A stretch of 64,000 bases of DNA from CBDFMG01 sp965221205 [NCBI: bacterium] (GTDB taxonomy: Bacteria; SM23-31). A model generated the notes under the pieces. It worked only from the letters and a program-made list of their open reading frames with translations. It ran no database searches and was not told the DNA's origin. Location of the stretch: contig OZ244870.1 of NCBI GenBank assembly GCA_965221205.1, forward strand, positions 3,472,001-3,536,000, in the 5' to 3' direction. Below are positions 11,197-54,260 of the stretch, piece by piece. A program made the position numbers and the translations under genes. Position 1 is the first letter of the stretch. Each line of letters opens with the position of its first letter.

Positions 11197-12564
11197 TTAT
11201 CGAATGAGGAGCACCCGGTCTTGCGGCGGGTACAACCATTCAAGACCGTGCTCCGTGACTAATACATTTTCTTCGATGGCAACGGGGATCTTTTTTCCAT
11301 TCCATTCGTCCGCCGGCCGGTAAACTCTGAATTCCAGAGAAATGATGGCGTTGGGTCTGACTTCGTATTCGGTCAGTTCGGGAGACCACTCGGCAAGCCC
11401 GGCCGTCACATCGTGGGCGACACTGCTCATTCCATGTAATCCCACATTTACCTCGATACCGGGTACATTACTGGGGCGTTCTATATCTGTGTAAACGTAG
11501 CCGGCATCCCGAAGGTGCTGTTTGAGCTCATCTAGTTGTTCCCTGCCTGTTCTGCCCGAACGGACGTTTTTTCGGATGATCTCACGTACTTTCTTTGTCT
11601 CTTCAAATGCTCCGACCACACCCGGAGGTGCCGTGAGTTCCCCCTCTTTGAGGACATACGCAAACCGTTTGATGTCAGTCGAGAAATTGTTGCGGTTGAG
11701 TCCCCAATCGATCCACAATATGTCCCCTCCCTGGATGACGCGTCCCATTCTTTCCTCACTGCTCATGGTTCCATACCCCTGCAATTCAGGTTCCGGGAAT
11801 ACCGCCCCCGGAAACCAGGTTCTACGCAATCCCATCGCTTTACGGTGCTCTTCCAACCACTGCATGACCTCGAAATAGGTCGTTTTACCGGGTGTGATAA
11901 CTTCGTTGGACAAGGCACGTTCAATTCCCCTTCGTGTGATGTCACCGACCTTGGAAAACTCGATGATTTCACTGGCAACATGTTCGCCGTGAAAATCTGC
12001 AATAAGACGCTGTGCGGATACAAATCGTTCGGCATATTTCTCGCCTAATTCCTCCGCGAGGAACGTGTAATCCTTGTGGGAAAGGCCGTCCGCGTTATGA
12101 ACTCCTTCCCCTCTGATTGGAGGATCGAGGAAATTCAAGGCAATTCGTTTCGGATCACGGTCCTCGACGATCGACCGGAGATCAGCTCCTTCCTCGATCT
12201 CGTCATAGGCACCACATATATCGGCCAGTTCGGAACTGCCCGGTCCTCCAAGTGAATACCTCTCAATGCGGTCGCCGCCCCCGTCATAGAAGACGTACGT
12301 ACCATGTCCGTAGGCAGTTTCGATGCCGAAATCGAGTATCAGAGGTTCGGTGCCGCGGCCGTGATCGATGACAATCCACATATCGATGTTATAACGACGC
12401 ATCGCATCGGGAAGCACGTAATCGAACTTGTCTTTGCGGATCGTGCAGGAAATTTCCCACTCGGACATCCATGATGATTCAAAATTGTCGGGCGGGCGCT
12501 GCGCAACGGCATCAGATACAGTGAGAAGCACAGCACATACTACAATCAAAAATCGAAACAACAT
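11197..12564 (-). CDS. Exported M24 (aminopeptidase P/creatinase-like) protein A
   Basis: The 455 residues have a Sec signal peptide (cleavage near AVAQ, residue 22), a creatinase-type N-terminal domain and a C-terminal M24 fold. All five metal-ligand positions can be matched: Asp286 in WIDWG, Asp297 in STDIKR, a His in VNVGLHG or SVAHDV, Glu411 in ISLEFRV and Glu431 in IEENVLVT. A dinuclear-metal peptidase of the Xaa-Pro type is therefore plausible, acting in the periplasm or outside the cell. It is visibly more GC-rich than neighbouring paralogues and the most divergent member, so it may have a different history. A strong terminator follows. The start is preceded by a GAGG-type ribosome site. 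Confidence 0.85.
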   Translation of the reverse strand: MLFRFLIVVCAVLLTVSDAVAQRPPDNFESSWMSEWEISCTIRKDKFDYVLPDAMRRYNIDMWIVIDHGRGTEPLILDFGIETAYGHGTYVFYDGGGDRIERYSLGGPGSSELADICGAYDEIEEGADLRSIVEDRDPKRIALNFLDPPIRGEGVHNADGLSHKDYTFLAEELGEKYAERFVSAQRLIADFHGEHVASEIIEFSKVGDITRRGIERALSNEVITPGKTTYFEVMQWLEEHRKAMGLRRTWFPGAVFPEPELQGYGTMSSEERMGRVIQGGDILWIDWGLNRNNFSTDIKRFAYVLKEGELTAPPGVVGAFEETKKVREIIRKNVRSGRTGREQLDELKQHLRDAGYVYTDIERPSNVPGIEVNVGLHGMSSVAHDVTAGLAEWSPELTEYEVRPNAIISLEFRVYRPADEWNGKKIPVAIEENVLVTEHGLEWLYPPQDRVLLIR

Positions 12565-12814
12565 AACCTTCCCCTCCTGTTATTAATAGGGTCTCTTTGT
12601 TAATTTTCTTATGTGCGCTGTAAGAACAAATGTGCATACGTACGGAGACAAGTATCGTATGCAATTAACGTGCACAAGATTTTTCTTCTGACAGACAGTG
12701 CTGTACATTGTGTGAATAATGCTGCTCCACCATCTTACCGGGAACAATTCAAAGGTGCGGATATGTACAGACACATTGTGACTATCGTAAAAGCAGACTT
12801 CTGTTCAGTCGACA

Positions 12815-14206
12815 TCATTTAATGAGATAAAGCTCCTTTTTCAGTGGAGTCAAATACTCAACGCCACTTTCAGTGGCAATCGCCTGCTCATGATCCCAAA
12901 AGAATAAATATTGGTCTTCATCTTTGTTGGATGTCAGTGACGGCATATAGAAAAAATATTCTAACACAAAGTGGTGATTGGGTGCGAGCGGTATATCATA
13001 CGTCCAATCCGGGCCATACGAACCAATCCTGGGGCTAAAATCAGTATAGAGGGGATGGCAGTCGATACTCAGCAGTGTTTTTTCAGGATCATAACCCTGG
13101 GAATAAGCGGGGAAATTGTTCTTAGGCTGAACCATATGCATTTGGGGATCCACAATAATAATCCCTGCATCTTCAAATTTCAGCTTGTAGTTTTGAATTA
13201 TTTCACGAGCGGTAAGTCCCGCCTTGATGGTTTCTGTCAGAATCGTATCGATTTTCAGATATTCTGCATAGAGCTTTTTGATTTCCGGCGGCGGTTCGGT
13301 CTCTCCTTCACGGAGCACATAGGCAAACATTCCCTGGCTTGGAAATGCAACGATGTCGCCTCTCTGAACCACACTGTTTTCATAGCCTTTAGTCCTTCCC
13401 CTTTGTGAAACTCCCGTGCTTCTCCGGGTAAAGAAAGTTCCATACCTAATATCGGTTCTTTTCGTTACACCCGGTACGACTTCGGCAATAGCTTTCTTGA
13501 CATGTTCATTTTGATCGATACGCTCTCTCTTCCATTTTTCAACTTCGACCGGCACCGGACTTGCAATGTAATCCAGCAACACATATTCAGACGAGACCAG
13601 CCTGTCGGCATATTTATCACCGAGTTCTTTGACCAATAAGAGGTAGTCTGTATACGAAATACCGTCCAGTACATTTCTGGTAGTCGGCCACGGTCCCAGC
13701 TCTTCCCCGTAATTTACAGCAATGCGTTTGGGGTCACGTGCTTCAACAAATTCTCTGAGGCCCTTAAACCGGTAATCATATTCTGTCATCGGGTTTGACA
13801 CCGGTTCCACCACAAAAACCGGGTCGTGGATTATGTCGTAGGCTCCACTTTTTTCGAGTAAATTAGTCTCTACCTCTTCTCTTTGACGCTGTGTAGCTCC
13901 CCAGCGGCGCCCGAGAACCGCACGTTCGATCCTGTCACCGCCGCGGTCCGTGAAGACGAAAAGGCCGGATTCACTGCCCAGCTCTTCTGCACCAAAGCGG
14001 TCAGGGATTGCATCTCTCATCACATGAATCCACATGTCCACATTGTTCTTTCTCATGGCTTGGGGCAGAATAAGGTCAAACTTTTCCCGGCGAATCTGAT
14101 TCCTCAATTCCACGGGAACCGTGCCTCCCAAATCCTGAGCCTGTGCATCGGCAAAAGGTACTGTGAACAGCACAGCAAATAAAAAAATCATACCTCGAGT
14201 TTTCAT
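12815..14206 (-). CDS. Exported M24-like protein B (metal site altered)
   Basis: The 463 residues have a signal peptide (FAVLFTVPFADAQAQ), a creatinase N-terminal domain with FTDRGGDRIERAVLG and an M24-like C-terminal domain. Where other members have the two metal Asp residues, this protein reads GDIVAFPSQGMFAYVLREGE, so about 11 residues with both Asp are missing. The last Glu ligand is His (WDHEQAIATE). Conserved IDCH, GPDW and NHHFVLEYF remain, so the fold is under constraint although classical peptidase chemistry is unlikely. It is closest to protein H (52851-54260). The 3' flank of about 90 bases is shared with genes C and D. AGAGGAG precedes the start. Confidence 0.85.
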   Translation of the reverse strand: MKTRGMIFLFAVLFTVPFADAQAQDLGGTVPVELRNQIRREKFDLILPQAMRKNNVDMWIHVMRDAIPDRFGAEELGSESGLFVFTDRGGDRIERAVLGRRWGATQRQREEVETNLLEKSGAYDIIHDPVFVVEPVSNPMTEYDYRFKGLREFVEARDPKRIAVNYGEELGPWPTTRNVLDGISYTDYLLLVKELGDKYADRLVSSEYVLLDYIASPVPVEVEKWKRERIDQNEHVKKAIAEVVPGVTKRTDIRYGTFFTRRSTGVSQRGRTKGYENSVVQRGDIVAFPSQGMFAYVLREGETEPPPEIKKLYAEYLKIDTILTETIKAGLTAREIIQNYKLKFEDAGIIIVDPQMHMVQPKNNFPAYSQGYDPEKTLLSIDCHPLYTDFSPRIGSYGPDWTYDIPLAPNHHFVLEYFFYMPSLTSNKDEDQYLFFWDHEQAIATESGVEYLTPLKKELYLIK

Positions 14207-14329
14207 GACTTTCTCCTCTTTTGATTAATAGTGGTTATTTGTTGATTTTCTGACGTGCGTTGCAAGAACATATGGGGTATTCTTAAAGAGATAATACGGT
14301 TTGCATTTAACTTTAACAAGTACTATCTA

Positions 14330-14452
14330 CTCCTCGGACTGTACGATTTGCGAACCTTTGTGCTTATGTATCATACTGGGAGCAGAAGATAGCTCCAGAA
14401 AATTTGCCGATATTATTATTATCGTAAAAGCAAACTTCTACAGAGTCTGACG
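14330..14452 (-). repeat. Core repeat with conserved 3' flank
   Basis: ACTCCTCGGACTG and GTACGATTTGCGAACC, then a conserved stretch with TATGTATCATACTG and TATCGTAAAAGCAAACTTC that runs to the stop of gene C. The same flank is found 3' of gene B, gene D and the remnant at 19.1 kb. The whole gene-plus-flank unit has therefore been duplicated. Confidence 0.8.
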
Positions 14453-15961
14453 TTAGCGAATAAGACGAATTTCACTGGGCGGAGGAGTTAAATACTCGAC
14501 TCCACGTTCGGTGACAACTGCACCATCATGCATTTGTATCATTAAATGTTTCCCTGCACCCCATTTAGGCATCGGAATATAGACAAAGTATTCAAAAAAG
14601 AAGTGGTGATTGAGTGGAATTTTCATATCATGGTGCCAATCCGGACCATAAGAACCAATCCTGGGGGCAGGAAAAGTTGACATTTCTTGTGCTGCGGCAT
14701 GTGAGTCGATATTAACCTGGGTTTTATCCGGATTCAAATCTTTGGAATATTCCTGGCTGTCGTTAACAATAATCCCGGCTTCATCAAGTTCTCGACTGGA
14801 GATTTCATATATTTCAGTACCGGTACGACCCACCTTGATGTTATCTTCTAAAATCTTATGGATTTTCATTACATCTGCCCAAGCTTTATTGATCTCTGGA
14901 GGCGGTTCCGTCTCTCCTTCACGAAGCACATAGCCGATTTCATCTATGTGCTCATAGAAGTTCCCGAATTTCAATTTCAAACCCGAGGCGCCATGATAAC
15001 TACTATGATATCCAAGCCTTAGATGAATCAGGTCGCCTCTCTGAATCACATAGTCATCGCTTCTTTCAGCTGCGGTGGACCGTCCCGGATCCAAAGGTGC
15101 AGCCCAACCAATTCTATTTCCGTTCTTATCCACGACATAATGACCACCTTCTAGATCTGAGAATTTGGTTACACCCGGCACGATTTTAGCCCAATCTCTC
15201 TCATGAGTTTCAGCGATATACGTACGCATTCTCTTATATAGTGCGAATTCGCTCTTCACCGGTCTCGATATGTAATCATGTAACAGATATTCAGACGAGA
15301 CCAGCCTCTTTGCATATTTATCACCGAGAGCTTTGACTAATAGGATGTAGTCTGTATGCGAAATGCCGTCTTCTGAGATATCACCCACGTGCGATCCATG
15401 CTTTTCCAGGTAATTTACACCAATGCGTTTGGGGTCACGTTCGGCAACAAATTCTCCGATGTCTTCAAATCGGTAATCAAGTTCTGTTTCCGGGCCTCCC
15501 GGTAATTCCTTCCGTTCGACTGCTTCGCCGATTATGTCGTAGGCTCCACTTTCTTCAACCAAATCTGTCGAAAAGAGTGTCGAGATCTCCGCGAGCCCTC
15601 CGCTCATCACCGTAGTTTTACTCAGACGTCTCGTCTCCTCATTGCTCGAACCCAAATCAATAAATCTACGACCGAGAACCGCCCGTTCGATCCTGTCACC
15701 GCCACGGTCCGTGAAGATGAAAACACCGGAGTAACTGCCCAGATCTTCTCCAGCAAAGTCATCAGGGATTGATTCTCTCACCACATGAATCCACATATCG
15801 ATATTGTACTCCCTCATGGCTTGTGGCAGAATGAGGTCAAACTTATCCCGACGAATCTGATTCTTCAATTCCACTAAATCGTCCATTACCTGAGCCTGTG
15901 TACTGGAAAAAGGCACAGTGAACAGCACGGCAAACAAAAAAATTATACCTCGAGATATCAT
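14453..15961 (-). CDS. Exported M24-like protein C (metal site altered)
   Basis: At 502 residues this is the longest paralogue. The signal peptide is FLFAVLFTVPFSSTQAQ. Extra segments lie after the RAVLGRRF block and around the GDLIHLRLGY region. The first Asp ligand is not present (HLRLG). A later HIDEIGYV may hold the second. The last Glu ligand is His in IQMHDGAVVTE. IDSHAAA, GPDWHHD and NHHFFFEYF match B, D and H. This looks like the same divergent subfamily, and an altered metal site or a non-enzymatic role is inferred. The start has TCCTC-complement GAGGAA upstream, followed by a block (TGTTACGTTAAGCATATTAC) shared with genes E and G. Confidence 0.85.
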   Translation of the reverse strand: MISRGIIFLFAVLFTVPFSSTQAQVMDDLVELKNQIRRDKFDLILPQAMREYNIDMWIHVVRESIPDDFAGEDLGSYSGVFIFTDRGGDRIERAVLGRRFIDLGSSNEETRRLSKTTVMSGGLAEISTLFSTDLVEESGAYDIIGEAVERKELPGGPETELDYRFEDIGEFVAERDPKRIGVNYLEKHGSHVGDISEDGISHTDYILLVKALGDKYAKRLVSSEYLLHDYISRPVKSEFALYKRMRTYIAETHERDWAKIVPGVTKFSDLEGGHYVVDKNGNRIGWAAPLDPGRSTAAERSDDYVIQRGDLIHLRLGYHSSYHGASGLKLKFGNFYEHIDEIGYVLREGETEPPPEINKAWADVMKIHKILEDNIKVGRTGTEIYEISSRELDEAGIIVNDSQEYSKDLNPDKTQVNIDSHAAAQEMSTFPAPRIGSYGPDWHHDMKIPLNHHFFFEYFVYIPMPKWGAGKHLMIQMHDGAVVTERGVEYLTPPPSEIRLIR

Positions 15962-15984: not shown

Positions 15985-16060
15985 CGTGATAAATGTTACG
16001 TTAAGCATATTACTTTTACAAGTATTATCTGCTTCTCGGGCTGTACGATTTGCGAACCTT
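15985..16060 (-). repeat. Upstream block plus core repeat
   Basis: GATAAATGTTACGTTAAGCA, TTTTACAAGTATTATCTGC, then CTCGGGCTGTACGATTTGCG. It is nearly identical to 27378-27450. The rest of the gap to 16306 holds no gene that I can see. Confidence 0.8.
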
Positions 16061-19117: not shown

Positions 19118-19283
19118 TTATCGAATAAGACGAAGCTCTATAGGCGGCGGAGAGAAATACTCGACTCCACTTTCGGTAGCAATCGCCTGCTCATGATCCC
19201 AAAATAATAAATATTGGTCTTCATCTTTATTTGATGTTGGCGACGGCATATAGAAAAATATTCTAATACAAAGTGGTGATTGG
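19118..19283 (-). pseudogene. 3' remnant of an M24 gene (B/H type)
   Basis: The minus strand encodes the last 50 or so codons of a B/H-type M24 protein, with SNKDEDQYLLFWDHEQAIAT and a C-terminal LRLIR before the stop at 19118. One base is missing in the run near 19257, and homology ends at about 19283 where the sequence passes into the fucosidase gene's 3' flank. The complete 3' flank and core repeat follow. It is the leftover of a deleted paralogue, so at least nine M24 units once existed here. Confidence 0.85.
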
Positions 19284-19341
19284 ATGAAACTGGATCACAT
19301 TGTTTTCATTACCTGGACCTGCAGACCTGTGTTTAAGGTTG

Positions 19342-21253: not shown

Positions 21254-22663
21254 TTAGTGAATAAGACGAAGCTCTTTGGGATATGGAAAAAAATACTCTA
21301 CACCACGTTCGGTAGTCATCACACCGTCGTGAAATCGTAATTTAATAGATTCTCCTTCACCCCATTCAGGCATCGGTACATCGATAAAGAATTCCATAGA
21401 GAAATGGTGATAGAGCGGGAGTTTGATAGCATTCTGCCAATCCGGACCCAAAGGACCGATCCTGGGGGCATATAATCCTGAACCCGCGGCATGTAAGTCA
21501 ATAGCAACCCAGGTTTTATCAGCGTAACGCTCCCTGTCGAATCTTTGTATTTCGGTATTGATCATTCCCGCTTCTGAAACTTTTAGCTTGAGAATTTCAT
21601 ATGTTGCATCACCGGTACGTCCTATCTTAACATTGTCTTCCAAAATTTTACGAACTGTTTTTACGTCATTCCAGAGTCTTTTAATATGTGCAGGTGGTTC
21701 TGATTTTCCTTCCTCGAGTACATAGGCATACGCATCTATAGCCTCATGGTAGTTTCCGTAATGCCATCCAGGTCTCTGAAAACCGCCGCTTTGAGATCCA
21801 TCAGTTAAAATAATAAGTTCACCTCCCTGGAAAACATAGTCACCACTTTGTCTGCGACCGTTCTTATCCACAATAGAACGTCTCCTTCCCAGATCACTTA
21901 CTTTAGTAACACCCAGTACGATTTTACTCAACGCTTCTTCATGTATTTCATTGATATCGGAACGTATTCGTTTATAAAGATCAAATTCGCTCAGAACCGG
22001 TCTTACTAAATAATCAACAACTAAGTACTCAGATGAAATCATCCGCCCGGCATATATAGTACCGAGCGCTTTGGATAACAAATTGTAGTCGGTATGCGAA
22101 ATTCCATCCGGCCGATACCGGGGAAACTCATAAAATATTGCAGATCCTAAATCTTCCAGATAATTTACTGCAATGCGTTTAGGATCTCGCTCAATAACAA
22201 ATTCGCCGAGACCCGTAAACCGAAAATCTAATTCTGTTTTTGCTTTTCCCGGCCATTCGACTCCTTCTAATTCATTTAACTTTATTCTGATATTCGGATA
22301 GGCTTCCAAGGGAGTATTAATTTCCGGTTTAACAATAACATCATAGGCTCCACTCTTTTCTACCTTGTCCGTATTTAATCCAAAGAACGCACGTTCGATT
22401 CTGTTGCCACCACGGTCTGTAAAAACGAAAACTCCTTCATTGCTCCCAAAGTTATATCCTAGAGGATCGAGGTCTCCTTCTCTCACAACATGAATCCACA
22501 TATCGATCTCATGCTCCCGCATGATTTGAGGAAGGATAACGTCAAACTTATCCAAGAGGATTTGGTTTATCATTTCTGCAACATCTTCATCCTGAACCTG
22601 TGCATTGGCAAAAGGTACTGTGAACAGCACAGCAATTAAAAAAATCATAACTCGAGATTTCAT
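21254..22663 (-). CDS. Exported M24-like protein D (metal site partly altered)
   Basis: The 469 residues have signal peptide FLIAVLFTVPFANAQVQ. The N-terminal domain contains FTDRGGNRIERAFFG and ERDPKRIAVNYLEDLG. The candidate first metal Asp is kept in LIILTDGS and the second in EAIDAYAYV, separated by an insert. IDLHAAG keeps the His and HHFSMEFF the Glu, but the last Glu ligand is His (LRFHDGVMTTE), as in B, C and H. It is thus an intermediate between complete (A, F) and stripped (B, H) members. The 49-base gap to the upstream DUF885 gene suggests possible co-transcription. GAGG lies before the start. Confidence 0.85.
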   Translation of the reverse strand: MKSRVMIFLIAVLFTVPFANAQVQDEDVAEMINQILLDKFDVILPQIMREHEIDMWIHVVREGDLDPLGYNFGSNEGVFVFTDRGGNRIERAFFGLNTDKVEKSGAYDVIVKPEINTPLEAYPNIRIKLNELEGVEWPGKAKTELDFRFTGLGEFVIERDPKRIAVNYLEDLGSAIFYEFPRYRPDGISHTDYNLLSKALGTIYAGRMISSEYLVVDYLVRPVLSEFDLYKRIRSDINEIHEEALSKIVLGVTKVSDLGRRRSIVDKNGRRQSGDYVFQGGELIILTDGSQSGGFQRPGWHYGNYHEAIDAYAYVLEEGKSEPPAHIKRLWNDVKTVRKILEDNVKIGRTGDATYEILKLKVSEAGMINTEIQRFDRERYADKTWVAIDLHAAGSGLYAPRIGPLGPDWQNAIKLPLYHHFSMEFFIDVPMPEWGEGESIKLRFHDGVMTTERGVEYFFPYPKELRLIH

Positions 22664-22711: not shown

Positions 22712-24352
22712 TTACCACAGTTTTTTGATCTCGTCATCAAGTCCTGTCATTTCCCATCGGGTAAGAGAGATGGGGATCATCCCTGAGGCAAAAAAGCTGT
22801 CCATAAACTCTTGCAGATTAAAAGTGTCGCCCAACTGCATGGCGCGGTCTGCCATCAAACGTTCCAGTTCATTTTTTCCGGTAATGTAGATGGTCGCATG
22901 TCCCGGCTGCAGCATGCTGATATCAAAATCATACCAAGTGTCCATATCGGTTTTGCATTCCCATCCGCGTGGGCACCACTCCACGCAGTGCTGAAGCGCT
23001 TTTTCCATGGTAAATTCATTGCTGTGCAGCTTCAGGTCCGCGACGGCGCGTATGGCCCGCCAGGCAAGGGAAATATAAATCACCTCTCTGCTTCTAGGGC
23101 TTAAGTCCCACTCATCGTGCAGTCCCGCCGGGATCATGCCCTCTTCCATGAACGTGGACAAGGCTTCGGATCTGAGCCCACCATAGAGCGGATACGAACT
23201 ACGAATTGGACGGTCATCACGCCGATGTCTGAGATTGTCGAGATGATGACCAATGTGATTGTGAGCAACCTGCGCCATGGGATCATGACGCTCAGCCTGC
23301 TCAAAAAACTCGGCGCAATCGCCGTCACGGTCGGAGGGGGCTACCCATGGCCGATGAGGACCGCTGGGAGTGATGTAGTCCGGGACAGAGAAAATTTCAT
23401 TATTACGAACGAACCGGGTCAAGTAATCCTCTGCTTTGTTCCATAAGTGCGCGTGTCCTTTTTCAGTCGATACATAAGGAAGCTGTGGATGCTTTTTGTT
23501 TCTGTTTTCCTCCAGTTTCAAAAATGCCACAGCCCTTTGATATTCACGCAGGGCGGTGTTCATGCTCTCTTCCCACGTGTGAGGATAGAGCCAGACATTT
23601 TTCATCCACCAGTTGAAGTTTTCTTTTCCCACACCGGCAGGGAAAGTCATCTCGTCTTTTGTCTGGACGAGCCAGTTGCGATAATCTGTAACAGCAGTCA
23701 ATGCCTGCTCCGCATGGAGTACCAATTCCGGATGGTGCGATTTTAAACGTTCCACGAGATCCTTGAACATCAGGATCTTCTTTTCCTTGGTGCGGATGGC
23801 AATGATTGCCAATTCCTGGGCCGGTTCGGTAAGGTTCTGTTTGGCCTGCTTAAACAACTTTGGCACCGCTTGCAGCTGCATCTGCAAATTGGTAATCCTA
23901 TTTTCCGTCAACGGAAAGTCAATCATAAAGATATTGATGCCGTTGCCCCGCGATGGGAAACCGGGGATTCGTTGTGTTCCGTAAAAACCAGGATTATGCA
24001 CCCAGGGCAGCAGGATACGGTGATGGAAATTGAGGCCATTCATTTCCCCTCGCACCAGATGGTAGTCAACCTTCTGCGAAACGGGCCAATCACTAATATC
24101 CATCGCAGCCAAACGCTTCTGAAATTCTTTCAATCCCCGATACTGTTTCTTCATAGCAACTGCCGTGTAATCAGGTACACCATTAATGATTTCCGGCTGT
24201 TGAAATTCACGAAATTCGTTAAAAAGGCTGACAAGATCCGCATAATTACTGCTCCCGGCCACTAATGACCCTCCTGTTTCCGCAGTGCAATAAAACACCG
24301 GAATACAAGCAAGAAAAACAAAAGTGACTGCATAATGTTTATGTTTGTGCAT
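22712..24352 (-). CDS. DUF885 family lipoprotein, copy 1
   Basis: The 546 residues have a lipobox (IPVFYC, Cys22). Family landmarks are DYTAVAM, WPVSQKVDYHLVRGEMNGL and RPIRSSYPLYG. DUF885 proteins are thermolysin-like metallopeptidase relatives whose site reads HExxGH. Here residues 364-369 read HNHIGH, so the general-base Glu is replaced by Asn. The second copy at 43102-44748 keeps HEFIGH. The two are clear paralogues along their whole length. Copy 1 is therefore likely inactive as a hydrolase or changed in function. It lies directly upstream of M24 gene D and its own upstream region carries the extended repeat. Confidence 0.8.
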   Translation of the reverse strand: MHKHKHYAVTFVFLACIPVFYCTAETGGSLVAGSSNYADLVSLFNEFREFQQPEIINGVPDYTAVAMKKQYRGLKEFQKRLAAMDISDWPVSQKVDYHLVRGEMNGLNFHHRILLPWVHNPGFYGTQRIPGFPSRGNGINIFMIDFPLTENRITNLQMQLQAVPKLFKQAKQNLTEPAQELAIIAIRTKEKKILMFKDLVERLKSHHPELVLHAEQALTAVTDYRNWLVQTKDEMTFPAGVGKENFNWWMKNVWLYPHTWEESMNTALREYQRAVAFLKLEENRNKKHPQLPYVSTEKGHAHLWNKAEDYLTRFVRNNEIFSVPDYITPSGPHRPWVAPSDRDGDCAEFFEQAERHDPMAQVAHNHIGHHLDNLRHRRDDRPIRSSYPLYGGLRSEALSTFMEEGMIPAGLHDEWDLSPRSREVIYISLAWRAIRAVADLKLHSNEFTMEKALQHCVEWCPRGWECKTDMDTWYDFDISMLQPGHATIYITGKNELERLMADRAMQLGDTFNLQEFMDSFFASGMIPISLTRWEMTGLDDEIKKLW

Positions 24353-24555: not shown

Positions 24556-24605
24556 GTTTCCATTATATTTTTTTAGTTATAAAGAACAATATGGTAATTA
24601 CACCG

Positions 24606-25991: not shown

Positions 25992-25993
25992 GC

Positions 25994-27352
25994 TTAATGA
26001 ATCAGTACAATTCCTTCATTTGGTGGCTGAATCCATTCAACTCCCTTGTTGGATATAATTTGAACATTTGAAATATTAATTGAAAGTGGAAAACCGGGTC
26101 TTTCAGGAAGGTTCGTATGGACCATATATTCAAAAGCAAAAATATTATTCTCCTTAATCACCAGATGGTCCCGATCTGATCGAAAAGGCGCCATTGAAGG
26201 ACCGACGGCCTCGAGACCGCCATTATTATTACCCTGCGCATGATTATCAATGGAAAATCCAGACTTATCTGTATTAGCGAGTGCTTTCTGGATCATTTTA
26301 TAATCTTCAGCGCCAACATCTGTAAACGGTGTATATATATAGCCTGCCTCTTCCATAGCTTTGATCATAGCCTTCAAAGATTCCCCGGCGGTCATGCCGA
26401 CTTTCATATGTGGCCTCATAATCCATTGACCTTTAATCGCCAGATCAAAGGCCTTTTGTATACTTTCTGGAACACTTGTTTCCCCTTCTCGTAAGATATA
26501 TGCATGAGTTTTCGTATCTACGCTAAACGATGAAAACCCAAAGTCCATCCAGTCAACCCCACCAGCACCACAAAAAAGAAAATCACCGCGCTGTAATACG
26601 TAATGAGGCGAGCTTGTTTCGGATCGATCTGAAACAGCCGAGTAATAAACATTGGCACCTACATCCCCTACCGATGTTACACCCGGAGTTATACTCGACA
26701 ATTTTTTTAAAACTTTTTGTCGAGCTATTTCCAAAGTATTGGTCTGTACTGCCACTTCCCTGAGAGTCCTTCTTGAGCGGAAATCCGTAATGACATTCTC
26801 TGCAGACACCATTCTTGCTGCATATTTAGGCCCTAATATTTTTTCCAGTTTTACATATTGCGTATAGGATATACCGTCTGCTACAGCAAGCCAGTCGGAA
26901 TAATTTACTGCAATCGTTTTCGGGTCGCGTTCAGCAACAAATTCTGTTAATTCGTCATAGACTGAGAAGTCCAGATTGCCATAATCATATCCGGCAATTG
27001 CCCGCGCAATTTCAAGAGAACCACGCACATCTAGATTCGGAACAGCTCCTCTTCTAAAAATACCGCCAAACATTGCCCGCTCGATCCTGTCTCCTAAGTC
27101 GGTAAAGATCAAATAACCGTCTGTTTCTCCAAATTCATACACCAGAGGATCGGGATCTCCGGCGCGGGCAACATGGATCCACATGTCCACATTATTATCA
27201 CGCATGGCTCCCGGCAGGACAAGGTCAAGTTTATCTTTTCTTATCAGACGAAGAACTTCATTGGTATCTGGCGTATAGCCCCCTGTCTGTGCATTGGACG
27301 CAGGCACAGTGAACATCACTGCAACTAAAAATAACATTACTCGAGTTATCAT
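25994..27352 (-). CDS. Exported M24-like protein E
   Basis: About 452 residues from the ATG at 27352, which has AGAGGAG 7 bases upstream. The frame extends 16 codons further but the signal peptide (MLFLVAVMFTVPASNAQ) fits the later start. Metal-site positions kept are Asp in WMDFGF, Asp in SVDTKTHAY, His in IDNHAQGN and Glu in FAFEYMVH. The last Glu is lost (NISNVQIIS). The N-terminal domain has WIHVARAGDPDPLVYEFGE. It is close to pseudogene G at 49770-51334, which shares the N-terminal sequence and upstream block. A functional peptidase is possible but one ligand short. Confidence 0.85.
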   Translation of the reverse strand: MITRVMLFLVAVMFTVPASNAQTGGYTPDTNEVLRLIRKDKLDLVLPGAMRDNNVDMWIHVARAGDPDPLVYEFGETDGYLIFTDLGDRIERAMFGGIFRRGAVPNLDVRGSLEIARAIAGYDYGNLDFSVYDELTEFVAERDPKTIAVNYSDWLAVADGISYTQYVKLEKILGPKYAARMVSAENVITDFRSRRTLREVAVQTNTLEIARQKVLKKLSSITPGVTSVGDVGANVYYSAVSDRSETSSPHYVLQRGDFLFCGAGGVDWMDFGFSSFSVDTKTHAYILREGETSVPESIQKAFDLAIKGQWIMRPHMKVGMTAGESLKAMIKAMEEAGYIYTPFTDVGAEDYKMIQKALANTDKSGFSIDNHAQGNNNGGLEAVGPSMAPFRSDRDHLVIKENNIFAFEYMVHTNLPERPGFPLSINISNVQIISNKGVEWIQPPNEGIVLIH

Positions 27353-27377
27353 AACATTCTCCTCTTTTGATTTATTG

Positions 27378-27450
27378 GTGATAAATGTTACGTTAAGCAT
27401 ATTACTTTTACAAGTATTATCTGCTCCCCGGGTAGGATTTGCGAACTTTT
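27378..27450 (-). repeat. Upstream block plus core repeat
   Basis: GATAAATGTTACGTTAAGCA and TTTTACAAGTATTATCTGC, then CTCCCCGGGTAGGATTTGCG. It is nearly identical to 15985-16060 but truncated in the core. The IS element begins about 30 bases beyond. Confidence 0.8.
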
Positions 27451-40196: not shown

Positions 40197-41552
40197 TCAA
40201 CGAATAATCGATATCCTGTCAGTAGGAGGGTAGAGCCATTCGACGCCATTTTCAGTAACGATTGCGTTGTCTTCATAACCGATTCGTACTTTTTTACCGC
40301 CCCACTCCGGTACTGCAGTATACGCCATGAATTCAAATGAGAAAAAGTTATTCGGATGAATAGTCAGATGTGCTCTGTCGGGACGGAAATTGGCAATCGA
40401 TGGTCCGACTGCAAGCTCACTGCTTCCTGTATTACCCAGAGCATGAAGATCAACAGAAATTTCAGTCTTGTCAGGAAATTTTAAGTGCTCTCCCCGAATT
40501 TTACCGGAATAACCTCCGTCCATCGTAGGGTCTTCCAAAATGAATCCAAATCCTGCTTCTTCCAATGCGATCTTCTGAATTTCCAATGTTTCTCCGGCAG
40601 TCCTTCCAGCGATGATATTCTTTCGAATTACAGCCCGCGCTTTCAGCGCCTGGTCAAAGGCATTTTGAAATCCATGTGGTACGGATGATTCGCCCTCTCG
40701 CAGTACATATCCCATCCGCTGAATGTCAGTTCCATAATTCAACATTGATACGCCAAAATCGGTCTTTAAGAGATCTCCCCGTTTAATAATACGGTCGTCA
40801 GACTCTGATAAAACTCCTTCCGGGCCTTCGATAACAGCCACTGAAGGCAATCTGAATAGATAGTTGTGCCCGTACAGTATATTTTCTCCTTTCATCCACC
40901 ATGCAACATCTTCCAGCGTTGTAACACCGGGGGTAATGACTTCATTTGAGAGTGCCCGTTCGCTGATGTCTCTTGTCATGTTGCCTAATTTGGCATAAAA
41001 TACAATCTCACTTGAAACCCTCTGTGCACGGAAATCAGTAATCAGATGATCTGCAGAAGTGAGCCTGTTGGTATATGTGTCACCGAGCATATCAGTTAAA
41101 TGCAAATAATCTGTGTGCGAGAGGCCGTCAGAGGCCGAGATCCAATCAGACATATTGACTGCAATGCGCTTAGGATTTCGATCTGACACAAACTGTCTGA
41201 GGTGTTCAGACGAACTGAACATGTCATATGCACCACTCTGTTCGAGCAGTATTCCGCCGCCGCCAAGGACAGCACGTTCGATCCTTTCACCGCCCTTGTC
41301 AGTAAAAATAAAGTATCCACCTGTACCACCTAAATCGTGCTCCAAAGGATCGGGGTTTCCATGCCGAATAACATGAATCCACATATCGATATTATGTTCC
41401 TTCATGACCTTCGGAAGAACTATATCGAACTTCTCTTTCCGAATGAGACTTAACGTCTCCCATGCTTCACGAAGAGTTTGTGCCTGTGCATCATAAGTCT
41501 GCGAAAAGGTAATTATTGCTAAACAGATTGCTGCAAACTGGATTGCTCTCAT
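40197..41552 (-). CDS. Exported M24 (aminopeptidase P/creatinase-like) protein F
   Basis: The 451 residues have signal peptide FAAICLAIITFSQTYDAQAQ. All five metal-ligand positions are kept: Asp265 (LKTDFG), Asp276 (YGTDIQR), His370 (VDLHALG), Glu407 (FSFEFMA) and Glu427 (GYEDNAIVTE). Together with protein A it is the best candidate for an active Xaa-Pro-type peptidase here. The N-terminal domain carries FTDKGGERIERAVLGG. It starts 86 bases from IS copy 2 and has GAGGTG ahead of its ATG. The core repeat is not directly at its 3' end, perhaps because the IS inserted there. Confidence 0.87.
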   Translation of the reverse strand: MRAIQFAAICLAIITFSQTYDAQAQTLREAWETLSLIRKEKFDIVLPKVMKEHNIDMWIHVIRHGNPDPLEHDLGGTGGYFIFTDKGGERIERAVLGGGGILLEQSGAYDMFSSSEHLRQFVSDRNPKRIAVNMSDWISASDGLSHTDYLHLTDMLGDTYTNRLTSADHLITDFRAQRVSSEIVFYAKLGNMTRDISERALSNEVITPGVTTLEDVAWWMKGENILYGHNYLFRLPSVAVIEGPEGVLSESDDRIIKRGDLLKTDFGVSMLNYGTDIQRMGYVLREGESSVPHGFQNAFDQALKARAVIRKNIIAGRTAGETLEIQKIALEEAGFGFILEDPTMDGGYSGKIRGEHLKFPDKTEISVDLHALGNTGSSELAVGPSIANFRPDRAHLTIHPNNFFSFEFMAYTAVPEWGGKKVRIGYEDNAIVTENGVEWLYPPTDRISIIR

Positions 41553-43101: not shown

Positions 43102-44748
43102 TTATTCCAGCAGCTTTTTAATTTCGTCATCATAACCGGTCATTTCCCACCGCGCGAGTGACATGGGAATTATACCAGATGCCAGAAACTCGTCGATAAA
43201 ATCCTTGAGAACGAAATCTTTTCCCAATTGCATGGCTCTGTCTTTCAATAGCTTTGTGAAATGTGCCTTGCCGACTACCACGCCTGTATGAAAACCCGGG
43301 AAACGGAGATTGGATTGCATTTCATACCACACCATCGGTTCATCTTCTTGTGACCAGTTGTACGGCATGATCGAGGCACATAGCTGCCTCGACTCATCAA
43401 ACGTTATTTCGTTGCTATGCATTTTCAGATCAGGAAGTGAAAGGCTCATATGCGATGCGTTCATGAGGTATTCGACTTCTCTGCCCCGCTGAGGCCGCTC
43501 GTCGAGAACACCGGCTTGCATCGTCAGTTCTTCGAGTGAAGCAGCCCATCCCTCGAGACGGATCCAGTCTATGTTATAGAGACGATTTGCCGAGCGAATC
43601 GTACGATTATCACGTTCCTGCCGCTGTCCGTCGAACATGTGGCCGATAAACTCATGCGTTTCACCGGGGAGTATTTCACGTTCACGGGCTTTATGATCGA
43701 TACTGGGATTTGTCGGCAGCCCTCTCCTTCTAGGTTCACTGGGATCATAATAATCATGAGGATCCAGCCAGTCCGGGACAGTTAAAATCTCATTCTCACG
43801 AAGGAAATCAACAACGTAGTTAAGCGCTTGATCCAGATTTTCGTAATATTTCTCAGCGGTATCCGCAATTTCAAGTGGAGGAAGATTACGATTTCTGTTT
43901 TCTTCCAGTTCGAGAAAGGTGATTATACGGCTGTATTCATGCTGTACTATGATATTACATTCTTCCCAGGTATAGGGGAATAGGTGAACATTTTTCAACC
44001 ACCAGTTGTAGTTCTCTATCCCGATACCAGCTGGTCCGGTCATGCTGTCTTTGTTTGCCTCGAGCCATTTTCCATAGTTTATAACCGCTTCTGCAGCGCG
44101 TTCTGCGTCGGCGACTAGTTCCGGATGATGCTCTGCCAAACGCGCAGCAAGATTTGTATACATGGAAGCCTCGCGCTCATAATAGTGGGTCGCCAAAATC
44201 GCCAGGTCTCCCGGTACATCTTTAAGATTTCCTTGAGCTTGTTGGTAAACTGTTGGAATTGCCTGCAGCCGCGTTTGATAATCTGAAATTTGATCAGCAG
44301 ATAATGGAAAACGAGCCCTTCGTAAACCGGATACCCCGTCCATTACCGGCCCGCCGCCACCTTGGGAAGTAAGATAGAAAACAGGATCGCGTGACCAGGG
44401 TTTGAGAACACGGTGGAAGAAATCGAGGCCGTTCATCTCCGCTCTGACAAGATGGTAATCGACTTTTTGAGAAATCGGCCACTCTCTGATATCAACTGAT
44501 GCGAGACGTGCTTGATAATTCTTCAAGCCGTTATATTGTTCGCTCATAGCAGCCGCTGTGTAATCGGGGACACCATTAACAACTTTTACTGCCTGGAATT
44601 CACGAAACTCGTTAAAAAGATTTACAAGATCATCATAGTCACTGGTTGCAACGACATCAATTCCGCTGCCGCCTCCAGGAGAGCAATATAAGATTGAAAA
44701 GCATGCAAGAATAACACAAATTACGGCAAAATGATTGCGCTTGGGCAT
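43102..44748 (-). CDS. DUF885 family lipoprotein, copy 2
   Basis: The 548 residues have a lipobox (FSILYC, Cys22). It is paralogous to 22712-24352 through the whole length (DYTAAAM, WPISQKVDYHLVRAEMNGL). Unlike that copy it keeps the zinc-hydrolase motif HEFIGH at 365-370, with a downstream Glu candidate in RLEGWAASLEEL. Activity as a metallohydrolase or peptidase is therefore plausible, and the lipid anchor puts it at a membrane facing the periplasm or outside. It is monocistronic with a strong terminator. The substrate is unknown. No core repeat is seen directly at its 3' end. Confidence 0.83.
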   Translation of the reverse strand: MPKRNHFAVICVILACFSILYCSPGGGSGIDVVATSDYDDLVNLFNEFREFQAVKVVNGVPDYTAAAMSEQYNGLKNYQARLASVDIREWPISQKVDYHLVRAEMNGLDFFHRVLKPWSRDPVFYLTSQGGGGPVMDGVSGLRRARFPLSADQISDYQTRLQAIPTVYQQAQGNLKDVPGDLAILATHYYEREASMYTNLAARLAEHHPELVADAERAAEAVINYGKWLEANKDSMTGPAGIGIENYNWWLKNVHLFPYTWEECNIIVQHEYSRIITFLELEENRNRNLPPLEIADTAEKYYENLDQALNYVVDFLRENEILTVPDWLDPHDYYDPSEPRRRGLPTNPSIDHKAREREILPGETHEFIGHMFDGQRQERDNRTIRSANRLYNIDWIRLEGWAASLEELTMQAGVLDERPQRGREVEYLMNASHMSLSLPDLKMHSNEITFDESRQLCASIMPYNWSQEDEPMVWYEMQSNLRFPGFHTGVVVGKAHFTKLLKDRAMQLGKDFVLKDFIDEFLASGIIPMSLARWEMTGYDDEIKKLLE

Positions 44749-48482: not shown

Positions 48483-48529
48483 TGTCTCCTCCTCAATGGT
48501 GTCCCGTGTGCAGTTGACGGTGGTTGCTC

Positions 48530-48730: not shown

Positions 48731-48782
48731 TGTATGTTGTCAAATCAAGTCGAATAAACTTATCGAAAGATAAGAGATACAT

Positions 48783-49769: not shown

Positions 49770-51334
49770 AGTTAATTAATCGTACCCTCTGGCTCGGTAG
49801 TGGAGAAGGAAACGCAACTCAATTTTCAGTAACAATCGCAATATCATAGAATTGTAAAAATAATTGATTTTCTCTACCTCATTCAGGTACGGCATATGAA
49901 TCCTATATTCAAAAACAAAGGTGTGATTAAGTGGGGTCTTCATATCTCGTCGCCAATCCGATCATAAAGGGGAAATACTGAGTATAGCTTCTCTTTTTCC
50001 CTTGGCATGTATATCAACAATGAACTTGAGCCTTTTCATGGCCTGCATTTTTTGTCATATTGATCCACAGGGGTATAAAAATATCCAGCCTCTTCTACTT
50101 TATTGATAAGAACTCTCAGCATTTCTCCCGTAGTATGACTTGCCTTGATGTGTATCTGCAATATCTCACGGACTTTCATACCATGTTTTCAAATCCGTTT
50201 GAATTCTTGAGGCAAATCAGTTTCCCCTTCCAAAAGCCGGTTCCTAACAGGGAAACAAGCATAACCCTACTACCAAAACCCTGGAATATAGTAACCAGGT
50301 CACCTCTCTGGATTACATAGTCGCCGGCATAACTTTTATGATATTTATTTCCATATCGATCCCTAAGATCCTAAGATAAGGTTCCTTCTGAAGATCTTTT
50401 AATTTAGTAACACCCGGAACAATTCCAGCAAACTTTTTATCTAGATTTTCTGTAGCAATAAGGCTAAATTGGCGATAAAGCTCTATTTCCTGCGTCACCC
50501 TTCTTAATAGGTATTCTGTTATCAAATATTCAGCCGAGGCTATCTTTTTCGCATATTTATCACCGAGCGCTTTTACCAAAAGGAAGTAATCTGTATACGA
50601 AAGACCAACGTTAAGTGACGATCTCGCTGACCTTACGGAGTTTCCCAGTTTTTCTGAGAAATTTACAGCGATACGTTTGGGATCACGTTCGGCAACAAAT
50701 CCTCCGATGTCCCTAAATCTGTAACCCAATTCCGTTTCCAAGCCTCCAGACTGTTTTATTGGAAATCCTTCTACGACTTTCGAACCCGCGGCAGGATATG
50801 AGGTCTGTAAGACTTCTCCATGGATAATGTCATAGGCACCAGGATCTATCACATCACTATCAAAAATGGCCCGCTCGATCCTGCTTCCATTTCGGTCGGA
50901 TTTCGTTTGGCAACAAAATCAGTTATTTCGTCGTAGACATCAGGAATCATAAAATCCTGTCTGGGGTCAAGAAAATTGTTATAATTATAACCGGAAAAAG
51001 CTCGTGCGACGTTCCGAGAAACTTGTACATCAGCTCCTGCATTGCCAAACACAGCCCGTTCGACCCTATCACCCAGATCCGTAAAAATCAGATAACCGGA
51101 TGTCGAGCCAAATTACTGAGCCAGTGGATCGGGGTCTCCAGCACGCGTGACATGAATCCACATGTCCACATTATTGTCGCGCATGGCACCCGGCAGAATA
51201 AGATCAAGTTTTTCGTTTCTCATCAGACGAAAAACTTCCCCTCCTGTTTTTGCCGTATGTTCCCCTGGCTGCGCATTGGCATTAGGCACTGCAAACATCA
51301 CAGCAATTAAAAATATCATAACTCGAGATAGCAT
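49770..51334 (-). pseudogene. Dead M24 gene G
   Basis: The N-terminus (51113-51334) is intact with signal peptide FLIAVMFAVPNANAQ and WIHVTRAGDPDP, close to protein E. It then breaks at an in-frame stop (TTACTGAG region near 51114). Two more open pieces continue in other frames: 50849-51052 (E-like, FSGYNYNNFLDP) and 50313-50852 (C/D-like, ETELGYRFRDIGGFVAERDP). The last 540 bases hold only scattered matches to the M24 C-terminal domain. Because the front resembles E and the middle resembles C and D, it may be a recombinant of two paralogues that later decayed. Confidence 0.85.
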
Positions 51335-51359
51335 AACCTCTTCCTCTATTGATTCTTGT

Positions 51360-52814: not shown

Positions 52815-52850
52815 GCATTCTGCTCCTCGGGCTGTACAATTGGTGGACCA
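52815..52850 (-). repeat. Core repeat
   Basis: TTCTGCTCCTCGGGCTGTAC, AATTGGTGGACC, ending at the stop codon of M24 gene H. Confidence 0.75.
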
Positions 52851-54260
52851 TCAACGAATAAGATAGAGTTCCTTTTGCGGTGGAGAAAAATACTCGACTC
52901 CACGTTCGGTGGCAATCGCCTGCTCATGATCCCAAAATAATAAATATTGGTCTTCCTCATCGTTGGGTGTAGGCGACGGCATATAGAAAAAATATTCCAT
53001 AACAAAGTGGTGATTGGGTGGGAGTGGTATATCATACGTCCACTCCGGACCATAAGAACCTATCCTGGGGCCACGCATTTCCTGGTACTTTCTCTCACGT
53101 GATCCTTTTCCCATGCCATGGGCGTCGATGCTAAGGTGTGTTTTTTCAGAATCATATCCTGTGGAATAAACAGGGAAATTGTTCTTTGGCTGAATCATAT
53201 GCATTTGGGGTTCCCTGACAATAATCCCTGCCTCCTCAAATTTCTGCTTGTAATTTTTAATTATTTCACGAGAGGTATGTCCCGCCTTGATGGTTTCTGC
53301 CAGAATCTTATCGATTTTCAGATATTCTGCCCAGAGTTTTTTGATTTCCGGAGGCGGTTCAGTTTCTTCTTCACGAAGCACATAGGCGTACATTCCCTGG
53401 CTTGGTGATGCAACGATGTCGCCTCTCTGGATCACCATGTTTTCATAGCCTGGATTCCATCCCCTTTGGGATATCCCTGTGCTTCTCCGGCTCAAGAGAG
53501 TTACTCTCACCTCGCGATTTTTGGTTACGCCCGGCACGATTTCAGCAAAAGTTTTCTTTACACGTTCAATTTCGTCCTGACGCATTCTCTTAAGAAGTTG
53601 AATTTCACTCGGCACCGGATTTATAATGAAATCCACTGTCACGTATTCAGATGAAACCAGTCTGTTGGCATATGAATCACCGAGTTCCTCAGTCAAGAGG
53701 AGATAGTCTGTTAGCGAAATGCCGTCTGTCTCTCCTCTGGAAGTCGCCCACGGTCCCAGATCATGCTTGAAATTTACCGCAATTCGTTCGGGGTCACGTG
53801 CTTCAACAAATTCTCGGAGGCCCTTAAAACGGTAGTCATATTCTGTCATCGGCTCTGTCACCGGTTCCTGCACAAATACCGGGTCGTGGATTATGTCGTA
53901 GGCGCCGCTTTCTTCAAGAAAATTAGTGTCTCCCTCTCCCCGTTCACGCTGCGTAGCTCCCCAGCGGCGTCCGAGAACCGCACGTTCGATCCTGTCACCG
54001 CCACGATCCGTGAAAACGAACACACCAGAGGTACTACCCAGGTCTTCTGCACCAAAGGGATCAGGAACTGCTACTCTCATCACATGGATCCACATGTCGA
54101 TGTTGTTCTTTTTCATGACGTGGGGTAGAACGAGGTCAAACTTTTCCCGGCGAATCTGATTATTCAATTCCACTAAATCGTCCATTTCCTGAGCCTGGCA
54201 ATTGACAATAGGTACTGTGAATATAACAGCAATAAAAAATAACATTACTCGAGATATCAT
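52851..54260 (-). CDS. Exported M24-like protein H (metal site altered)
   Basis: The 469 residues have signal peptide FFIAVIFTVPIVNCQAQ. It is very similar to protein B: the segment with both metal Asp residues is absent (GDIVASPSQGMYAYVLREEE) and the last Glu ligand is His (WDHEQAIATE). IDAHGMG, GPEWTYD and NHHFVMEYFFYMPSP are kept. B, H and the 19.1 kb remnant form one clade that has lost the classical M24 site but is retained as open frames, so a structural, binding or different catalytic role is possible. GGAGGAG precedes the ATG. The upstream flank has the CCCCATATCAATTCTC block shared with other gene families. Confidence 0.85.
   Translation of the reverse strand: MISRVMLFFIAVIFTVPIVNCQAQEMDDLVELNNQIRREKFDLVLPHVMKKNNIDMWIHVMRVAVPDPFGAEDLGSTSGVFVFTDRGGDRIERAVLGRRWGATQRERGEGDTNFLEESGAYDIIHDPVFVQEPVTEPMTEYDYRFKGLREFVEARDPERIAVNFKHDLGPWATSRGETDGISLTDYLLLTEELGDSYANRLVSSEYVTVDFIINPVPSEIQLLKRMRQDEIERVKKTFAEIVPGVTKNREVRVTLLSRRSTGISQRGWNPGYENMVIQRGDIVASPSQGMYAYVLREEETEPPPEIKKLWAEYLKIDKILAETIKAGHTSREIIKNYKQKFEEAGIIVREPQMHMIQPKNNFPVYSTGYDSEKTHLSIDAHGMGKGSRERKYQEMRGPRIGSYGPEWTYDIPLPPNHHFVMEYFFYMPSPTPNDEEDQYLLFWDHEQAIATERGVEYFSPPQKELYLIR

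What the first reader, a model, noticed from the sequence alone, without database searches (positions are those of the whole stretch)
11197..54260. M24 paralogue family with a coordinated metal-site change (Glu to His)
Seven open M24-like genes (A-F and H in the feature list), one dead gene and one 3' remnant lie here. Proteins A and F keep five classical ligand positions. In B, C, D and H the last Glu ligand is His in the same place (for example WDHEQAIATE, MHDGAVVTE, FHDGVMTTE against IEENVLVTE). B and H also lack the segment with both Asp ligands. E has lost only the last Glu. The same substitution across four diverged open frames, with IDxH, GPxW and HHFxxEYF retained, fits a new functional subfamily better than random decay. 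It could be a new metal site, a binding protein or an immunity-type partner.
Basis: partly seen in the sequence, partly recalled or inferred. Interest (0 to 1): 0.82.

Follow-up and report, generated by a model that had tools for sequence, protein, structure and literature searches.

The report
Secreted peptidase relatives with creatinase-like sites
Four of the seven related proteins in this stretch belong to a well-preserved bacterial protein family that probably descends from two-metal peptide-cutting enzymes and whose active site was rebuilt, apparently independently, to resemble that of the metal-free enzyme creatinase; the family often sits beside its still two-metal relatives, and what it does is not yet known.

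Summary
Seven intact M24-like genes, a frameshifted gene and a 3' remnant are present. A and F keep all five dinuclear ligands (D,D,H,E,E). In B, C, D and H the last Glu is His; C and D, like B and H, have also lost both Asp ligands. This is not decay. In a 106-row tree the His-type proteins form one clade (SH-aLRT 100; 71 rows: 68 His, 0 Glu). H, E and H are each kept in 68-70 of 70 readable rows, with new near-invariants (R, G, W, mostly an extra H). Relatives occur in Acidobacteriota/Aminicenantes, Gammaproteobacteria, Gemmatimonadota and others, often in tandem with one another and with five-ligand paralogues, under purifying selection. The "new metal site" reading weakens: creatinase, M24-fold and EDTA-tolerant in one species, reads N,A,H,E,H at these positions. 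Trees with ligand columns masked reject common descent with creatinase, so the HEH site arose separately. Creatinase's His232 and Arg335 are absent, so these are not creatinases. Best reading: a mostly secreted, metal-independent M24 subfamily, probably hydrolases working beside a dinuclear peptidase. Non-catalytic partner subunits or a mononuclear metal site remain open. The immunity idea has no support.

The parts
11197..12564 (-). A: M24B-type protein, five dinuclear ligands D286,D297,H377,E411,E431 (EE type)
   Evidence: PF00557 52.6 bits, cut-off 23; ligand columns; EE group of tree
12815..14206 (-). B: His-type (EH), Asp segment deleted; H384/E416/H439, H411, R393, W401
   Evidence: 87% identical orthologue in L002, dN/dS 0.18
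14453..15961 (-). C: His-type (EH); both Asp replaced (R315, H338); H421/E457/H478, H452, R434, W442
   Evidence: AF2 pLDDT 83, pTM 0.85, pita-bread fold
21254..22663 (-). D: His-type (EH); both Asp replaced; H391/E424/H445, H419, R401, W409
25994..27400 (-). E: separate small type with last Glu = Ser (S444); groups with two L071 proteins inside the EE branch
40197..41552 (-). F: EE type, five ligands D265,D276,H370,E407,E427
   Evidence: PF00557 39.7 bits; AF2 pLDDT 85.3, pTM 0.83, best Z 27.9 to 2zsg
52851..54260 (-). H: His-type (EH), Asp segment deleted; H381/E422/H445, H417, R399, W407
   Evidence: 59-71% identical relatives in several phyla
12890..12892 (-). codon of B His439 (site of the second Glu ligand)
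   Evidence: numbering, coordinates by arithmetic
14528..14530 (-). codon of C His478
   Evidence: numbering, coordinates by arithmetic
21329..21331 (-). codon of D His445
   Evidence: numbering, coordinates by arithmetic
52926..52928 (-). codon of H His445
   Evidence: numbering, coordinates by arithmetic
49774..51355 (-). dead M24-like gene, pieces in three frames
   Evidence: tblastn
19121..19293 (-). 3' remnant of a B/H-like gene
   Evidence: tblastn, (85% to H over 46 aa)
22712..24352 (-). DUF885 gene next to D; DUF885 also neighbours the family elsewhere
   Evidence: PF05960 79 bits; 3 of 79 scanned neighbours
43102..44748 (-). second DUF885 gene
   Evidence: PF05960 64 bits
57310..58941 (-). 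sodium:solute symporter, as also found beside the family in other genomes
   Evidence: PF00474 305 bits; 5 of 79 scanned neighbours

Best explanation
Shown: B, C, D and H belong to one monophyletic, widely conserved His-type (EH) subfamily. It shares a family with dinuclear M24B-type proteins (EE type, like A and F). EH rows have lost the first Asp ligand (all), mostly also the second (60 of 70), and changed the last Glu to His, leaving a nearly invariant His/Glu/His set plus new near-invariants (Arg, Gly, Trp, mostly one more His). The same three residues occupy the same positions in creatinase, and the trees say this arose independently. Inferred: EH derives from the EE type; it no longer holds the dinuclear site; and it uses the HEH pocket without metal to hold and hydrolyse a small C-N-bonded substrate, in the manner of creatinase but with a different general base, because creatinase's His232 is missing. 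Most members carry a hydrophobic N-terminal stretch, so most should work in the periplasm, beside a dinuclear EE peptidase, on peptides or amino-acid derivatives taken in through TonB receptors and passed to sodium symporters.
For: Single clade, SH-aLRT 100, stem 0.58, 71 rows with 68 His, 1 Ser, 1 Pro, 1 cut by a contig end. H421 70/70, E457 68/70, H478 68/70, D419 70/70 (D419 is also Asp in 18 of 30 EE rows); R434, G439 and W442 69 of 71 each, H452 63 of 71, these four not conserved in 30 EE rows (His in 4 of 30 at H452). Creatinase 1chm and 7 homologues all read N-A-H-E-H; phmmer aligns creatinase 'rEHD' to prolidase 'riED'. Creatinase+EH as one clade rejected with ligand columns masked: dlnL 141.5, p-AU 5e-79; 139.3, 5e-40 with the three longest outgroup rows left out. 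Pita-bread fold for C: Z 21.9 to 2zsg, 20.1 to creatinase 1chm. A. faecalis creatinase keeps over 80% activity with EDTA (PMC7568399 passages). Purifying selection: dN/dS 0.10-0.18 in six close EH pairs. Hydrophobic N-terminal stretch in 76 of 95 EH rows. Pfam hits among 79 scanned neighbours: symporter 5, S15 4, TonB 3, DUF885 3, M28 3, M20 2, but also sulfatase 5 and HD domain 3.
Against: Creatinase's His232, Glu262 and Arg335 equivalents are not conserved in EH (their roles are recalled), so no general base is identified. Mn and Mg raised the activity of the EDTA-tolerant creatinase. One EH subfamily (LDHEH, 10 of 70 rows) keeps an Asp at the second ligand site, and others have His there; both would suit a metal. 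In three gammaproteobacterial members of one subfamily the site is broken (E1 to S or A, or last His to S), while the pair L057/L058 is still constrained (dN/dS 0.17), which suits a non-catalytic role there. 19 of 95 EH rows, 13 of them B/H-type genes of Acidobacteriota-labelled records, lack a clear hydrophobic stretch, so not all are clearly secreted. No substrate is known. Distances in the models could not be measured.
Confidence: 0.48

Rival explanations
1. EH proteins are non-catalytic or composite-site partner subunits. They pair with the EE peptidase through the usual M24B dimer, in which the N-domain of one chain covers the active site of the other, and shape its specificity or stability.
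For: Of 51 same-strand neighbour pairs under 300 bp, 19 are EE-EH and 24 EH-EH; cross-phylum recurrence of EE+LDHEH and of the G/W/LHH trio; a DDHEE protein in 9 of 10 EH genomes among G001-G011, and a lower-scoring match in the EE range in 12 of 12 EH-level genomes of the Acidobacteriota sweep (G173 by sequence); one subfamily keeps its frame after losing E1 or the last His. DddP dimer: N-domain of one chain lines the tunnel of the other (PMC4108388 passages).
Against: The HEH pocket and R/G/W are more conserved than a scaffold needs. 39 of 76 loci hold EH without EE in the stretch fetched, many of them short contigs. Co-location does not show contact.
Confidence: 0.27
2. EH proteins carry a mononuclear metal (Zn or Fe) on His/Glu/His, a new single-metal hydrolase or oxygenase site in the pita-bread fold.
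For: His/Glu/His is a common mononuclear ligand set (recalled); an extra His stands at H452 in 63 of 71 rows, and the second Asp site holds His in several subfamilies or still Asp in the LDHEH one (10 of 70).
Against: The same three residues in creatinase go with an enzyme that tolerates EDTA. HExxH, the hallmark of many single-zinc peptidases, is in 0 of 71 EH rows. Replacements at the Asp sites are not uniform.
Confidence: 0.2
3. B, C, D and H are decaying copies of peptidase genes.
For: A dead gene and a remnant lie in the same window.
Against: Near-fixed HEH in 70 readable rows, no stop inside the listed matches, low dN/dS, cross-phylum conservation.
Confidence: 0.02
4. EH proteins are immunity or defence partners.
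For: Restriction-modification genes lie in the left end of the window.
Against: No PADLOC match for C, D, F or H; family hits among relatives' neighbours are mostly transporters, peptidases and sulfatases.
Confidence: 0.02

Closest known systems
Creatinase (creatine amidinohydrolase, PDB 1chm; M24-fold non-peptidase)
   Same: Pita-bread fold; His/Glu/His at the third to fifth ligand positions; both Asp ligands absent, as in B, C, D, H
   Different: Separate clade (p-AU 5e-79; 5e-40); His232, Glu262 and Arg335 equivalents absent; most EH members carry a hydrophobic N-terminus and many lie in paralogue arrays
Xaa-Pro dipeptidase / aminopeptidase P (M24B, e.g. 2zsg, 3q6d)
   Same: Fold of C and F (Z 21.9 and 27.9 to 2zsg); A and F keep the five ligands
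   Different: B, C, D, H lack D,D and the last Glu; PF00557 below cut-off or unmatched for B, C, D, H
DMSP lyase DddP (M24-fold, iron, 4b28)
   Same: Fold (Z 18.5 for C); M24 scaffold used for another reaction
   Different: DddP keeps a binuclear site with His371, Glu406, Glu421 and three Asp (PMC4108388 passages); B, C, D, H do not
Spt16 N-domain / Ebp1 (M24-like proteins without peptidase role)
   Same: Fold match for Spt16 (Z 17.3 for C); precedent for a non-peptidase M24 protein (PMC3888471, start of abstract)
   Different: EH keeps a near-invariant HEH pocket, was found here in bacterial records and mostly carries a signal-like N-terminus

Membership tests
M24 fold (pita-bread) | pita-bread fold over the chain | tested here: met
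   C: Z 21.9, rmsd 4.4, 332 aligned to 2zsg; F: Z 27.9, rmsd 4.4, 341 aligned. A, B, D, E and H were not folded; they align with C and F along their length
Pfam PF00557 Peptidase_M24 | score above the gathering cut-off of 23 bits | tested here: not met
   Met by A (52.6) and F (39.7); C 18, E 12.9; B, D and H no match
M24 dinuclear metallopeptidase | five ligands D,D,H,E,E | tested here: not met
   Met by A and F; B, C, D, H lack both Asp and read H,E,H; E reads ?,D,H,E,S
Creatinase | His/Glu/His (324/358/376) in place of the last three ligands | tested here: met
   8 of 8 creatinases NAHEH; EH rows 66 of 70 HEH
Creatinase | catalytic His232 and Arg335 (roles recalled) | tested here: not met
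   His232 column reads mostly E, S or R in EH; Arg335 column is a gap in 50 of 70
Creatinase | common clade with creatinases | tested here: not met
   p-AU 5e-79 against and 5e-40 without three long outgroup rows; ligand columns masked, 25 of 71 EH rows used
Creatinase | activity on creatine without metal | not testable with these tools
   needs protein
Single-zinc peptidases with HExxH | HExxH motif | tested here: not met
   0 of 71 EH rows
DddP DMSP lyase | binuclear site with three Asp, His and two Glu | tested here: not met
   B, C, D, H lack the Asp ligands and the last Glu; DddP ligands from PMC4108388 passages
Known defence proteins | match to a PADLOC model | tested here: not met
   C, D, F, H: 0 families at E 0.001; A, B, E not scanned

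The most novel reading that the evidence does not exclude
EE and EH paralogues form a hetero-oligomeric periplasmic pita-bread complex: one dinuclear peptidase subunit and several metal-free HEH subunits, each covering its neighbour's active site, so that composite pockets with different chemistries process a substrate in steps. I recall no M24 assembly built from such a set of paralogous subunits, and the creatinase-type site would have evolved a second time.
Probability: 0.25. Interest if true: 0.8.

Novelty: new variant of a known kind. Interest (0 to 1): 0.57.

Why it matters
The M24 fold is best known for two-metal peptidases, with creatinase as the classic exception (recalled). Here a second, independent and diversified lineage seems to have taken the same route (Asp ligands lost, last Glu to His). 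It reaches eight EH-level matches in one genome (G173), and for the window's four members it is missed or scored below cut-off by the Pfam M24 model and NCBIfam, so such genes are likely to be left unnamed. It gives a natural replicate for asking how a dinuclear hydrolase turns into a metal-free enzyme or a partner subunit, and it points to an unknown, probably periplasmic, function in bacteria known here from metagenome-assembled genomes.

Tried and rejected
Decay: rejected. Defence or immunity: no support. Descent from creatinase: rejected by the masked trees. HExxH: absent. The window's own genome is not held, so the organism is not identified; its nearest relative by gene B is L002, a MAG labelled Verrucomicrobia (87%). 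A plasmid search found one weak match. Distances around the metal site could not be measured: structure prediction gives no coordinates and no model files were among those listed in the box, so the position of the His rests on sequence and HMM alignment and on matching strands (H478 in strand 472-484 of C, E427 in strand 420-433 of F). The second structure job went to F (EE control), so B and H, which lack the Asp segment, were not folded. The neighbour statistics have no background control, and in GC-rich loci the stop-to-stop frames used as neighbours include spurious ones. Gaps use estimated starts.

Rows dropped: 5 short matches (one is the window's own dead-gene frame), then 2 fragments and near-copies over 92% (106 of 142 kept), then 2 distant M24 rows, then thinning to 25 of 71 EH and 14 of 30 EE rows (long outgroup branches flagged by the program, so the tree was rebuilt without three of them). 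At most 8, 11 and 5 candidates a genome were scored.

I therefore moved the best explanation from 0.50 to 0.48 and the mononuclear rival from 0.18 to 0.20. I also corrected the number of dN/dS pairs and of rows without a signal-like stretch.

Papers: from PMC4108388, PMC7568399, PMC5924519 and PMC4404410 I saw passages; of PMC3888471 and others the start of the abstract in search listings. None of the listings names a His-type M24 family; that is a statement about these eight searches alone.
Full report
What is there. The window holds seven open, same-strand M24-like genes, one frameshifted gene (49774-51355) and one 3' remnant (19121-19293). All seven share an N-terminal domain with the motifs DMWI and RIER. 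Pfam's M24 model passes its cut-off only for A and F; it misses B, D and H, and C and E fall below the cut-off; no NCBIfam model reaches its cut-off for any of the seven.

The ligand change. On alignments of the seven and of 135 relatives, A and F have D,D,H,E,E. B, C, D and H have lost both Asp (B and H by deletion of the segment, C and D by replacement) and carry His for the last Glu. Profile alignments to a solved prolidase place that His on the second Glu of the binuclear site (weak terminal segments), and a profile of the EE type places D,D and the last Glu on the known ligand motifs. E is a different case: its last Glu is Ser, it groups with two proteins of one MAG labelled Bacteroidetes, and its first Asp is doubtful.

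A clade, not decay. One genome-contig scan gave 76 loci (the best 80 of 119 candidates kept). In a tree of 106 dereplicated rows the His-type is one group (SH-aLRT 100, stem 0.58) of 71 rows: 68 His, 1 Ser, 1 Pro, 1 cut off. Within it H421 is 70/70, E457 68/70, H478 68/70 and D419 70/70; R434, G439 and W442 are each 69 of 71 and H452 is 63 of 71. The EE rows keep all five classical ligands in 30 of 30 and do not conserve the R, G, W and H positions. No EH row has the first Asp; 10 of 70, the LDHEH type, keep the second. Pairwise dN/dS is 0.10-0.18 for six close His-type pairs and 0.36-0.52 for three distant ones, with one pair saturated. Records carrying the His-type are labelled Acidobacteriota (including Holophagales and Thermoanaerobaculia), Aminicenantes (among 21 loci without a phylum), Gammaproteobacteria, Gemmatimonadota, Verrucomicrobia, Marinimicrobia and Syntrophaceae. 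These are MAG labels. EE-type relatives also occur in Heimdallarchaeota and Bathyarchaeota records.

Fold. AlphaFold2 models from alignments of 59 and 30 sequences are good (C pLDDT 83, pTM 0.85; F 85.3, 0.83). For C the best match is 2zsg (Z 21.9), with creatinase 20.1, ectoine hydrolase 19.0, DddP 18.8 and Spt16 17.3; for F 2zsg 27.9 and creatinase 24.1 to 24.4. Coordinates are not released, so distances were not measured; the HEH residues sit on the strands that carry H,E,E in F.

The creatinase precedent. Creatinase, in which the pita-bread fold was first described (PMC4404410 passage), reads N,A,H,E,H at these five positions, as do seven homologues found in genomes. With the ligand columns masked, holding EH and creatinase together costs 141.5 log-likelihood units (p-AU 5e-79). 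The program warned of long outgroup branches; without the three longest the cost is 139.3 (p-AU 5e-40). EH sits with the EE and ES rows on a branch of support 100. So the HEH set appears to have been reached twice. It is not the same enzyme: the columns of creatinase's His232, Glu262 and Arg335 hold other residues or gaps in EH. EH instead has its own Arg, Trp and His.

Arrangement. Among 76 loci, 30 hold two or more family members. Of 51 same-strand neighbour pairs closer than 300 bp, 24 are EH-EH, 19 EE-EH, 5 EE-EE and 3 involve fragments; 39 loci hold EH without EE, 16 EE without EH, 19 both. The pair EE + LDHEH recurs in records labelled Acidobacteriota, Gammaproteobacteria, Woeseia and Aminicenantes, and a trio of EH types (G, W/R/N/H/C, LHH/FHH/FRH) in Aminicenantes, Gammaproteobacteria, Woeseia and Gemmatimonadales. 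The window has the C/D and B/H types; elsewhere these two types lie side by side (L005, L006, L028). Genomes carry 2-20 family matches in 11 searched (fragments, split matches and distant M24 genes included). In 199 genomes of the phylum of G007 (Acidobacteriota by its record title) 12 reach EH-level scores (542 bits or more, against 377 or less for other matches), and all 12 also have a lower match in the EE range (288-377 bits; G173 by sequence). In 150 genomes of the phylum of G008 (Gemmatimonadota by title) 41 have a family match and only G008 scores at EH level. In 299 genomes of the phylum of G005 (Pseudomonadota by title) only G005 itself matches at E 1e-60. Of ten EH genomes among G001-G011, nine have a DDHEE protein; in G011 only a contig-end fragment was seen. 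EH thus appears almost only where EE is present, while EE occurs without EH.

Setting. Neighbours within 1.5 kb on the same strand were collected (99) and 79 of them scanned, the 20 beside archaeal and some EE-only loci being left out: sulfatases 5, sodium symporters 5, S15 4, DUF885 3, M28 3, HD domain 3, TonB receptors 3 and M20 2. No background was measured. The window itself has two DUF885 genes, a symporter, a TonB receptor, an amidohydrolase, an aldo/keto reductase and a fucosidase. A hydrophobic stretch precedes the conserved domain in 76 of 95 EH, 33 of 42 EE and 3 of 3 ES rows; 13 B/H-type rows of Acidobacteriota-labelled records and the archaeal EE rows lack one.

Most likely mechanism. 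Shown: common origin of EH, loss of the dinuclear ligand set, near-fixed HEH, convergence with creatinase on these residues, fold of C, genomic pairing. Inferred: no metal; a pocket that binds and hydrolyses a small C-N-bonded substrate; work beside the EE peptidase in periplasmic peptide or amino-acid breakdown. Against it: no general base is identified, one EH type keeps an Asp ligand position, and one gammaproteobacterial subfamily has lost E1 or the last His while staying under constraint in the pair tested, which suits partner subunits. M24 dimers can place the N-domain of one chain over the other's site (DddP, PMC4108388 passages), so EE-EH heterodimers are plausible and directly testable.

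Verdict. A real, conserved, overlooked subfamily. It is a new variant of a known kind (M24-fold protein without the dinuclear site), with creatinase as its convergent counterpart, and not a demonstrated new metal site.

Noticed in passing
27482-28761 and 38832-40111: Two identical 1280-bp inverted copies of an element with a 285-aa gene that reads like an IS3-type transposase (by eye, not scanned) enclose about 10 kb; inside lies a 56% GC gene (31288-35901, 1537 aa) that matches PADLOC TmtA models (E 4e-50).
   Followed up: partly
45329-48728: A TonB receptor gene of about 65% GC in a 40-50% GC neighbourhood, flanked by 87-bp inverted repeats (97%): looks like a mobile or recently acquired cargo.
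   Followed up: no
1-10000: AT-rich (28-31% GC) left end with type III restriction-modification genes and a further methyltransferase.
   Followed up: partly
14295-14359, 15997-16061, 18958-19022, 21094-21158, 24493-24557, 48771-48835: A family of intergenic repeats, 60-85% alike over 65 bp to one reference and extending to 270 bp in one pair, near several of these genes.
   Followed up: no
25994-27400: E belongs to a small third type (last Glu = Ser) shared with two genes of L071, inside the EE branch: a second, separate change at the same site.
   Followed up: partly
L057:4516-5733, L058:6328-7533, L033:10433-11668: In one EH subfamily the Glu or the last His is lost in three gammaproteobacterial records while the gene stays in the array; the L057/L058 pair has dN/dS 0.17.
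   Followed up: partly
L060, L062, L063, L064, L067, L068, L073: EE-type proteins without a signal-like N-terminus in records labelled Heimdallarchaeota, Asgard group and Bathyarchaeota, 53-62% identical to window F.
   Followed up: no
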